Source of the DNA: Helicobacter pylori oki112
Lineage (GTDB): Bacteria; Campylobacterota; Campylobacteria; Campylobacterales; Helicobacteraceae
Length of the DNA stretch: 64,000 nucleotides
Reading direction: 5' to 3'
Assembly: GCF_000600085.1 (NCBI RefSeq)
Contig: NZ_CP006821.1
Span: 806,001 to 870,000 of the forward strand
In this document: positions 58,536-61,025 of the stretch, piece after piece
Layout of the letters: every line of letters starts with the position of its first letter
How positions within the stretch are numbered: the first letter of the stretch is position 1
Notes under the pieces: model-generated
The model's database searches: none
What the model saw: the letters and a program-made list of their open reading frames with translations, nothing else
What the model was told of the DNA's origin: nothing
Made by a program: the position numbers and the translations under genes

Positions 58536-59357
58536 TTAAGGCATCGCATCAAAAACCACGCTGATCCCATTTTTTAAAATGATAGGGTTTTTCGCATCAG
58601 TGATATGGATAAAACGCACGCCATCAAGCAAATTAAGAGCGATTTCTTGTTGTTTGTTTTCTTTAGCAATGATTTGAATAATCTTTAAGTTTTCGTCATA
58701 AAAAATGATTTTGGGTTGCCATAAAGGGTTATTAGAGCTTATTTTTAAATACGCATTCTGATTCACGCTCAGCCAGTATTTCCCGCTCGCTTCCTTAAAC
58801 TCCACAGGATCGCTACTTAAAACTAAGGCTCTCGCGTTAGGGAGCTTGACTTCTTGTAAAGAAAAATCGTATTCCCACTCTTTCAAGGATATGCGTCTAA
58901 TATCTGTAAAATCAAAACCATGCCTTTTCATCGTCTCTATCAAAATGTTAGGGTCTAAAACATATTCCGTTTTAAGCTCGTATGAAAAAACATTCTCGCC
59001 TGAAGAACTTTGCATTTTAATAGGCAAAACATACGAATACCCCATCATGCTCAAAGAATTATTGATGCTTTTGGCAAACGCTAGGGGATTGCTTGAAGCC
59101 TTGAAAGTGATTTTTAACATGCTTGGCTTGTCAAAATTAAAAGACAAAAGCCCGTTTTCTTTGAGAGTGTTGAGCAGTTTCAAGGAATCCAAACGCCCCA
59201 TTGCATAGAAATCCTTACGATTTTTAAACAAACGCTCTAAAAAAAGCTTGTTCGTATGATAAGCCCGCTCCCCCATTAAATTCTCAATCTTATCGTTTAA
59301 AGCATCAGCGCTTAATAGCGTCCCCCCAACAATAAAGGCTAAAAAAAGGTTTTTCAT
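58536..59357 (-). CDS. Unknown periplasmic protein, last gene of the rpmE operon
   Basis: 273 residues with signal peptide MKNLFLAFIVGGTLLSADA. Mixed alpha/beta sequence follows (LDSLKLLNTLKENGLLSFNF, SMLKITFKASSNPLAFAKSI) without a recognised motif. The C-terminal part (GVRFIHITDAKNPIILKNGI) is beta-rich. The ATG overlaps the stop of the RodZ-like C-terminal frame (ATGA), so translation is coupled. The context suggests a role in envelope or cell shape, as inference only. Confidence 0.7.
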   Translation of the reverse strand: MKNLFLAFIVGGTLLSADALNDKIENLMGERAYHTNKLFLERLFKNRKDFYAMGRLDSLKLLNTLKENGLLSFNFDKPSMLKITFKASSNPLAFAKSINNSLSMMGYSYVLPIKMQSSSGENVFSYELKTEYVLDPNILIETMKRHGFDFTDIRRISLKEWEYDFSLQEVKLPNARALVLSSDPVEFKEASGKYWLSVNQNAYLKISSNNPLWQPKIIFYDENLKIIQIIAKENKQQEIALNLLDGVRFIHITDAKNPIILKNGISVVFDAMP

Positions 59358-59998
59358 TGCTGGAGTTCTTTGTATTGGGCCTCGTTGATGAGCGTTAAGC
59401 CTTTATTTGGCTCGTATAAAAATCGTTTGGTTTTGCCATCGTTATATTCTTGTTCTTGATGGTTGTTTTTAAGACTAAGATGCCCATGCCAAAAACGCAA
59501 CAACAAGCGGTGGTTTTTGGTTTCTAAAGAATAATTTTTTTTAAAAACCTTTTGAAAGGAGTTTTTTTTCTCATCTAAATCAATCACTTCCACCCAAATA
59601 TCTCGTTTAGGGATAATATAAATGGTATTAGGATCTTCTTTGATCGCTTCTTTTTCTTGCTTGTCTTGTTCTTTTGGTTTTTCTTGTTTTTCTTCTAGTT
59701 TAGGCGTTGTCTCTGGCTTGTTTTCTTCTGCAAGATTAGCGTCATTGGAAAAACTATTTTTAGTGCCGGATTTAATAGCGCTTTCTTGCCCTCTTTCTTC
59801 TTTTAAAGAAGAGCTGTTTTGAACGATAACGACCGCTAAAACAATGACAATCACCCCTAAAACCAAAACAAAGGGTTTCCATTTGGAAGATTTTTTGGAT
59901 AATGAAGTGTTGGCTTGATTGATGCTGTAATCCAATTCAACCTTAAGGGGTTTTTTTTGCTGTTTCTTCAGGATCTGTTTCTTGATTTTTCTCTTCAC
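59354..59998 (-). CDS. RodZ-like protein, membrane and periplasmic part (separate frame)
   Basis: A 214-residue frame, GTG at 59998. Basic N-terminus, one helix (FVLVLGVIVIVLAVVIV), an acidic/Lys linker and a C-terminal beta domain: IYIIPKRDIWVEVIDLDEKK, NYSLETKNHRLLLRFWHGHL. This resembles the periplasmic DUF4115 domain of RodZ. The first 18 codons overlap the end of the upstream HTH frame. The frames meet at an A8 tract (59951-59958): removing one A joins them as EETAKK-PLKVELDY into one protein of about 324 residues. So this is either the 3' half of a frameshifted gene or an independently translated piece. Confidence 0.75.
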   Translation of the reverse strand: MKRKIKKQILKKQQKKPLKVELDYSINQANTSLSKKSSKWKPFVLVLGVIVIVLAVVIVQNSSSLKEERGQESAIKSGTKNSFSNDANLAEENKPETTPKLEEKQEKPKEQDKQEKEAIKEDPNTIYIIPKRDIWVEVIDLDEKKNSFQKVFKKNYSLETKNHRLLLRFWHGHLSLKNNHQEQEYNDGKTKRFLYEPNKGLTLINEAQYKELQQ

Positions 59999-60329
59999 TT
60001 ACGCTCTCTTTAAAAACACACACTTTGTCAAATTCTTTCATCCATGCGCTCAAATCAATTTTATACTCGCGCTCTAAAATTTGTATAAATCCCCTAGCAT
60101 GCACCCTTGATAAAGACTCATAGCGTTTTTCTAATATGTAGTTGATATTTTTAGAAGCGATTTTAGTCGCCTTGCAAATTTCTGTTACTCCAACTTCTTT
60201 TAAAATCTGCAAATTTTTATCTAAATTTTTAAGCGATAATTCTTCTAATGCCGCACCAGAAATATCTTTAGAAATGTTTTGAACATCAGAAAGATCTAAA
60301 TTTTCTAAACTTTTTTTATTCTGTTCCAT
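59943..60329 (-). CDS. RodZ-like protein, helix-turn-helix part (separate frame)
   Basis: A 128-residue frame. Residues ~40-105 match the RodZ/HTH_25 domain: VTEICKATKIASKNINYILE and SLSRVHARGFIQILEREYKI (ARGF is the family hallmark). In RodZ this cytosolic domain binds MreB to set cell shape. Here the frame ends at 59943 just after an A8 tract, before the expected membrane helix, which is found in the next frame. AGGTGG lies upstream of the ATG. It follows the rRNA methyltransferase gene by 12 bases. Confidence 0.78.
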   Translation of the reverse strand: MEQNKKSLENLDLSDVQNISKDISGAALEELSLKNLDKNLQILKEVGVTEICKATKIASKNINYILEKRYESLSRVHARGFIQILEREYKIDLSAWMKEFDKVCVFKESVSEEKNQETDPEETAKKTP

Positions 60330-60341
60330 TCAATTGACCAC

Positions 60342-61025
60342 CTAGTTGATTTTATCCATTAAGATCCCTGCTGCCACGCTCACATTGAGCGAATCAAAAT
60401 CTCTTCGCATTTTTACGCTCAATATAGCGTCCATTTTAGCAAGGATTTTTTTAGACAACCCCTCATGCTCGCTCCCCAAAAAAAGAGCGCATTTTTTTAA
60501 AGATAGATTTTCTACTTGACTAGAGCCTTGCATGCTCGCGCCCAAACATAAAAACCCGCTCGTTTTCAATTCATTGATTAAATCCAGCGTGTTAGGTGCA
60601 ACGCTAAAAGGCAAATCATACATAAGCCCCAAGCTGGATCGCACAATCCCCTCATAAGCCAATTCTTTAGCAAAATCTAAAATAACGCCATCCATTCCTA
60701 AGCAATACGCACTCCTAAAAATACCCCCAATATTCCCCACATCCGTAATGCCGCAAAGCACTAAAAGTTTTTGAGCTTTTTTAACCTCTTTTAAAGAAAC
60801 CGCTAATGGCAATTCCACCCTAGCTAAAACCCCTTGATGGTTCCCTCCCTTAGCCAAGCTTTGTGCTTTTTTATTATCCACTTTGATGATATTAGGGCAT
60901 GCTTTTTTGAGCGCGAAAAAAAGCTTTTTGTCTATTTCTTTAGAAAGATAGATTTCTTGCAATTTTTCTTGATGAGAGTTTAGAATGTGCATAACCACCT
61001 GCTTGCCATAAATTACTGCCTGCAT
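60342..61025 (-). CDS. SpoU/TrmH family rRNA 2'-O-methyltransferase (RlmB-like)
   Basis: A 227-residue SPOUT enzyme. The N-terminal substrate domain begins VIYGKQVVMHILNSHQEKLQ. The knotted catalytic domain has LLVLCGITDVGNIGGIFRSA, CALFLGSEHEGLSKKILA and DSLNVSVAAGILMD, the three family motifs. It probably methylates a 23S rRNA guanosine; a tRNA target cannot be excluded. It sits 12 bases after rsmI in the rpmE operon. Confidence 0.87.
   Translation of the reverse strand: MQAVIYGKQVVMHILNSHQEKLQEIYLSKEIDKKLFFALKKACPNIIKVDNKKAQSLAKGGNHQGVLARVELPLAVSLKEVKKAQKLLVLCGITDVGNIGGIFRSAYCLGMDGVILDFAKELAYEGIVRSSLGLMYDLPFSVAPNTLDLINELKTSGFLCLGASMQGSSQVENLSLKKCALFLGSEHEGLSKKILAKMDAILSVKMRRDFDSLNVSVAAGILMDKIN

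What the first reader, a model, noticed from the sequence alone, without database searches (positions are those of the whole stretch)
59354..60329. RodZ-like cell-shape gene split into two frames exactly at an A8 tract
Seen: the upstream frame carries an HTH_25-type domain with ARGF and stops at 59943. The next frame carries the membrane helix and a RodZ-type C-terminal beta domain. They overlap across eight A residues (59951-59958, minus strand). Dropping one A fuses them to about 324 residues with RodZ domain order. Inference: the gene may switch by slipped-strand mispairing, be rescued by slippage during transcription or translation, or be fixed as a broken or split gene. A switchable MreB partner would give heritable variation in cell shape. 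The fact that the downstream frame keeps a GTG start and is coupled to a third gene argues against simple decay.
Basis: partly seen in the sequence, partly recalled or inferred. Interest (0 to 1): 0.7.

Follow-up and report, generated by a model that had tools for sequence, protein, structure and literature searches.

The report
Misnamed RodZ-like gene split at A8
In this Helicobacter strain a gene filed in public records as "sialidase", which likely encodes the cell-shape protein RodZ, is broken into two reading frames at a run of eight As, while 27 of 34 genomes of the genus carry it whole; this is probably a sporadic slippage mutation and not a dedicated shape switch.

Summary
A 128-aa frame (59943-60329, minus) and a separate 214-aa frame (59354-59998, minus) overlap across an A8 tract (59951-59958). 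All 13 nearest held relatives carry one 320-330 aa frame, as do 27 of 34 genus genomes. The best 120 of 2247 database homologues of the C-half are all 321 or 324 aa. So the split belongs to this strain.

A dedicated switch is not shown. The run is uninterrupted in 8 of 13 relatives and different in 5, two further A8 runs in the gene stay in frame, and copies broken at this tract are few (4 clusters, 17 sequences). Most likely this is a recent slipped-strand mutation. A sequencing error is not excluded: 3 of 71 A/T runs of 8 or more in this genome's sampled genes sit at frame breaks. A TTG with a 5-nt Shine-Dalgarno match, 7 nt after the upstream stop, could let the membrane half be made separately.

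The parts
59943..60329 (-). N-half: 128-aa frame with the RodZ-type HTH domain; ends before the membrane helix
   Evidence: AF2 model of this half; PDB comparison
59991..60257 (-). RodZ-like helical (HTH_25-type) domain, about residues 25-113
59951..59958 (-). A8 tract where the two frames part
59354..59998 (-). C-half frame (214 aa from a GTG; the GTG itself is probably not a used start)
59933..59935 (-). TTG in the C-half frame, 7 nt after the upstream stop; candidate reinitiation start
59941..59945 (-). TAAGG, Shine-Dalgarno-like, overlaps the upstream TAA stop; spacing 5 to the TTG
59801..59878 (-). single membrane helix (placed by correspondence with residues 151-176 of intact homologue P0002)
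59387..59626 (-). C-terminal beta domain (placed by correspondence with residues 232-311 of P0002)
   Evidence: for the weak RodZ_C resemblance
59562..59569 (-). second A8 tract in the gene, in frame
59535..59542 (-). third A8 tract in the gene, in frame
60342..61025 (-). rlmB (23S rRNA 2'-O-methyltransferase), conserved upstream neighbour
   Evidence: TIGR00186, 239.7 bits; 47 of 49 loci
58536..59357 (-). HP0555-like gene, conserved downstream neighbour; start overlaps the C-half stop
   Evidence: 49 of 49 loci

Best explanation
This is a probable RodZ orthologue (HP0554 by gene order, likely the membrane anchor of MreB) that this strain carries as two frames parted at an A8 tract, most likely through a recent, sporadic slipped-strand length change and not through an evolved switch. 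Shown: the two frames, the tract, one-frame copies in the relatives, otherwise open halves and the conserved gene order. Predicted: the helical domain, membrane helix and beta domain in RodZ order. Inferred: the protein binds MreB; in this strain the HTH half is a free cytoplasmic protein; the membrane half is likely made separately by termination-reinitiation at the TTG 7 nt past the upstream stop; tethering of MreB through this protein would be lost or reduced, so an altered shape phenotype would be expected; and a further length change could give one frame again in some descendants.
Against: No curated Pfam cut-off is reached by this protein. RodZ_C is seen in 1 of 26 C-domains only, and the E. 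coli RodZ comparison has a profile probability of only 14.8%. Foldseek alone gives no significant match. One of two MreB-contact positions is mostly not aromatic in the family. 8 of 13 relatives do keep an uninterrupted A run there, so a maintained tract is not ruled out. This genome's sample has 3 frame breaks at A/T runs of 8 against 0 in two relatives, which fits a read error as well as a mutation. The C. jejuni positional orthologue Cj0152c is listed essential (PMC10077673, passage), which makes a plain loss surprising unless the halves work or rescue occurs.
Confidence: 0.55

Rival explanations
1. Sequencing or assembly error: the tract length is misread and the strain carries an ordinary one-frame gene.
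For: With G024 frames as queries, the 400-kb sample of this genome gave 261 scoreable genes (247 intact, 9 with a stop, 5 frame breaks); 3 of the 5 frame breaks lie at A/T runs of 8, so 3 of 71 such runs are broken. With relatives as targets the figures are 0 of 72 and 0 of 80 (G024), 0 of 34 and 0 of 81 (G023) (Fisher p 0.12 for 3/71 against 0/72 and 0.028 against 0/161 pooled). Runs of 8 inside frames are somewhat denser here (23.3 against 16.3 and 17.8 per 100 kb of frame). An essential role as listed for Cj0152c would make a real break less likely.
Against: Overall A/T run spectra are alike in the three genomes (8-runs 22.0, 18.2 and 19.0 per 100 kb). 68 other A/T runs of 8 or more in compared genes are intact. 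The same tract is broken in 4 other database clusters, one on a 1.69-Mb contig with 6 members.
Confidence: 0.22
2. Rescue by slippage: RNA polymerase or ribosomes slip on A8 often enough to make some full-length protein from this allele.
For: Transcriptional frameshifting that rescues an interrupted gene is reported for Citrobacter tssM (PMC4256274, search listing only); both halves are kept without clear relaxation; essentiality of the C. jejuni positional orthologue.
Against: Selection against slippage-prone A/T runs becomes evident at nine nucleotides in a large share of genomes (PMC1088944, passages), longer than this run; two in-frame A8 runs in the same gene would slip as well. No stimulator was sought and no RNA or protein data are at hand.
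Confidence: 0.12
3. Evolved phase-variable switch: the A tract is maintained to turn the RodZ-like protein on and off and so vary cell shape heritably.
For: 8 of 13 nearest relatives keep an uninterrupted A run of one common length there. The same tract is broken into both alternative frames in 4 clusters. The C. jejuni pgp1 8-A tract varies in 29 of 859 genomes, and the isolates with the length variants that were examined were rods (PMC5133587, passages).
Against: 5 of 13 relatives have a different or interrupted run. The run is no longer than two other A8 runs in the gene. Broken copies are few in the database, although pipelines that file broken genes as pseudogenes may hide some.
Confidence: 0.1
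4. The protein is not RodZ but an unrelated single-pass membrane protein with an XRE-type HTH domain.
Against: The best of 86 compared chains is RodZ itself, and HTH, helix, linker and beta domain come in RodZ order.
Confidence: 0.15

Closest known systems
RodZ (E. coli YfgA; Thermotoga RodZ in 2wus; S. aureus YmfM in 3fym)
   Same: N-terminal helical HTH domain, one predicted membrane helix, disordered linker, C-terminal beta domain, in that order; one of the two MreB-contact aromatics mostly kept.
   Different: Sequence too far for curated Pfam scores; the position of E. coli F60 is not aromatic in most members; here in two pieces.
Campylobacter jejuni pgp1 8-A tract (shape phase variation; PMC5133587, passages)
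   Same: Cell-shape gene, A8 tract, natural length variants, related epsilonproteobacterium.
   Different: pgp1 encodes a peptidoglycan peptidase and its common length gives an intact gene; here A8 is the broken state and no shape data exist.
H. pylori genes with G tracts (fliP, pldA; PMC11756786, passages)
   Same: Frame set by homopolymer length.
   Different: Those are poly-G tracts described as phase variable; this is an A run in a gene that is nearly always intact in what was searched.
Cj0152c of C. jejuni (positional orthologue; PMC3847290 and PMC10077673, passages)
   Same: Same place in the operon by the gene numbers (cj0155c-cj0151c against hp0551-hp0555).
   Different: Listed essential in C. 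jejuni; I found no statement on essentiality of HP0554 in the passages seen.

Membership tests
RodZ | N-terminal cytoplasmic HTH domain of RodZ type | tested here: met
RodZ | one membrane helix after the HTH domain | tested here: met
   Predicted helix 151-176 in intact homologue P0002; strongly hydrophobic stretch in the C-half. Prediction only.
RodZ | C-terminal periplasmic beta domain (RodZ_C) | tested here: inconclusive
   Beta domain predicted at 232-311. RodZ_C in 1 of 26 at E 0.06 and none in the own genome. Whole-family profile against E. coli RodZ aligns the right region, E 0.0018 but probability 14.8%; the domain alone E 0.14.
RodZ | two aromatic MreB contacts (E. coli F60 and Y64, named in PMC4047632, passage) | tested here: inconclusive
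   Y64 position is F in 21 of 26 and L in 5; F60 position is H in 10 and W in 2 of 26 (the pairing of positions by the shared R-G step was done by eye).
RodZ | MreB present in the same genome | tested here: met
   MreB_Mbl 473.6 bits at G000:C1:76171-77157.
RodZ | MreB binding and rod-shape phenotype | not testable with these tools
   needs two-hybrid or deletion.
phase-variable contingency gene | hypermutable tract kept across strains | tested here: inconclusive
   8 of 13 nearest relatives keep an uninterrupted A run of one common length, 5 do not; all 13 are in one frame.
phase-variable contingency gene | both intact and broken alleles in nature | tested here: met
   4 of 9 truncated clusters (17 sequences) break at this tract, judged from protein tails; intact copies are the rule.
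phase-variable contingency gene | measured switching within a clone | not testable with these tools
   no reads at hand.
sialidase | Asp-box motifs (motif recalled, not from a call) | tested here: not met
   Found in 0 of the 120 best homologues; no sialidase family in the Pfam scans of the halves and of P0001 and P0002.

The most novel reading that the evidence does not exclude
Gastric Helicobacter vary a hidden RodZ by homopolymer slippage at two different joints: in H. pylori an A tract detaches the MreB-binding head from the membrane, while in other gastric species poly-C tracts in the periplasmic linker trim only the outer domain, giving a genus-wide, heritable tuning of cell shape.
Probability: 0.1. 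Interest if true: 0.8.

Novelty: new member of a known kind. Interest (0 to 1): 0.42.

Why it matters
H. pylori shape is studied intensely, yet in what I saw of five searches of the held library (listed titles, abstract starts and passages; one search listed 20 of 140 papers) nothing calls HP0554 a RodZ. If it is one, MreB gains a membrane partner in this species, population-genetic hits in HP0554 reported as "Sialidase A" (PMC9291697, passages) need rereading, and natural split alleles become ready test strains for what the RodZ head does when it is detached from the membrane.

Full report
What is there. On the minus strand the window holds a 128-aa frame (59943-60329) and a 214-aa frame (59354-59998) in another frame, overlapping across A8 at 59951-59958. 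The first carries the VHARGFIQIL stretch of an HTH domain; the second a hydrophobic helix and a conserved C-terminal domain. The gene lies after rlmB (TIGR00186, 239.7 bits) and before a 273-aa gene whose start overlaps its stop. By gene order these are HP0553, HP0554 and HP0555: the numbering rests partly on recall, and fits the record name "Sialidase A" for HP0554 (PMC9291697, passage) and the name sialidase of the homologues. In H. pylori hp0551-hp0555 is described as one multicistronic mRNA, with cj0153c as the orthologue of hp0553 (PMC3847290, passage). The window lies in a single-contig genome of 1,637,925 bases. Its best named homologues are from Helicobacter pylori.

The split belongs to this strain. 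With the C-half and the N-half as queries, 27 of 34 genus genomes (the own one counted among the 34) show both halves in an open frame of the same length. The other 7 are the own genome plus G003, G004, G010, G011, G014 and G015. All 13 nearest relatives (G016-G028, 82-92% identical in the C-half) are in one frame of 320-330 aa. In three of them the sequence equals the window's over the 27 bases before and the 41 bases after the tract, which pins the change to the tract. In the protein database the C-half finds 2247 homologues; the best 120, all that is listed, are 321 aa (90) or 324 aa (30). The N-half search admits only proteins of 70-224 aa and so selects broken or partial copies. It found 9 clusters, of which 4 (P0121, P0122, P0125, P0126; 17 member sequences) break at this tract, into both alternative frames. 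This is judged from their protein tails; their DNA was not seen. P0124 diverges just upstream, P0127 passes the tract and diverges later, and P0123, P0128 and P0129 are partial or differ otherwise. Caveat: annotation pipelines that file frame-broken genes as pseudogenes would hide some broken alleles.

How it most likely works. RodZ is an MreB-binding membrane protein of the Rod complex; in E. coli the HTH domain binds MreB, and the periplasmic domain is largely dispensable for rod shape (PMC6946637, passages). In this strain the break lies between the HTH domain and the helix, so the part that matters most is cut loose (inference). The upstream stop is followed after 7 nt by TTG in the C-half frame, with TAAGG at spacing 5. 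That 5-nt match is longer than the 3-4 nt found before the starts of the four operon frames checked. Termination-reinitiation could thus keep the membrane half and the downstream gene translated (inference). In 8 of the 13 nearest relatives the same bases are part of the intact coding sequence, so this looks like a coincidence that happens to help, not a designed feature.

Why I doubt a switch. 5 of the 13 relatives have a different or interrupted run, though 8 keep an uninterrupted run of one common length. Two other A8 runs in the gene stay in frame. A/T runs of 8 occur at about 22 per 100 kb here and 18-19 in two relatives. Compare C. jejuni pgp1, where an 8-A tract varies in 29 of 859 genomes and the variants examined are rods (PMC5133587, passages): variation at A8 is a known route to shape variants, so a reversible event remains possible.

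Could it be an error. In a 400-kb sample of this genome, 261 genes could be scored with G024 frames (247 intact, 9 with a stop, 5 frame breaks). 3 of the 5 frame breaks lie at A/T runs of 8, so 3 of 71 such runs are broken, against 0 of 72 and 0 of 80 in G024 and 0 of 34 and 0 of 81 in G023 (Fisher p 0.12 against 0/72, 0.028 against 0/161). That is a mild excess which fits either more slippage or misread runs. Reads decide.

A tension. The positional orthologue Cj0152c and its neighbour Cj0151c are listed essential in C. jejuni (PMC10077673, passage), while rodZ is non-essential in E. coli (PMC6946637, passage). If HP0554 is essential too, the split strain must live on the two halves, on rescue, or the tract is misread.

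Elsewhere in the genus. In G014 the frames part inside a 41-nt overlap that holds a C11 run, in the proline-rich linker after the predicted membrane helix. G015 has a contig that begins at a C8 run and G003 one that ends in the linker. Such truncations would keep head and helix. They hint that the gene's frame is unstable at different runs in different gastric species, but the assemblies are drafts.

Noticed in passing
L167 (G014), about 1344-1384; L168 (G015) 1-10; L165 (G003) end: In other genus members the RodZ-like gene carries poly-C runs (C11 in G014, C8 in G015) in the proline linker and is broken or cut by contig ends there, after the membrane helix.
   Followed up: partly
L163 (G010), L166 (G004), L169 (G011): The same gene is not in one frame in three more genus genomes; G004 has several stops, G011 breaks in the linker, the G010 break was not located reliably.
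   Followed up: partly
59354-60329 and public homologues P0001-P0120: Many public records call this family sialidase or Sialidase A, and a population study (PMC9291697, passages) discusses HP0554 variants under that name; no sialidase feature was found.
   Followed up: yes
G000:C1:614122-615487 and G000:C1:740806-742096 (both outside the window): Two more genes of this genome, whose G024 counterparts resemble a porin and an LdhH-like iron-sulphur protein (both below the curated scores), show frame breaks at T8 and A8 runs relative to G024.
   Followed up: no
58536-59357: The downstream HP0555-like gene sits beside the RodZ-like gene in 49 of 49 loci; its C. jejuni positional counterpart is listed essential, and HP0555 was among 12 genes followed up in a gastric-cancer GWAS (PMC6090961, passage); its function is unknown.
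   Followed up: no
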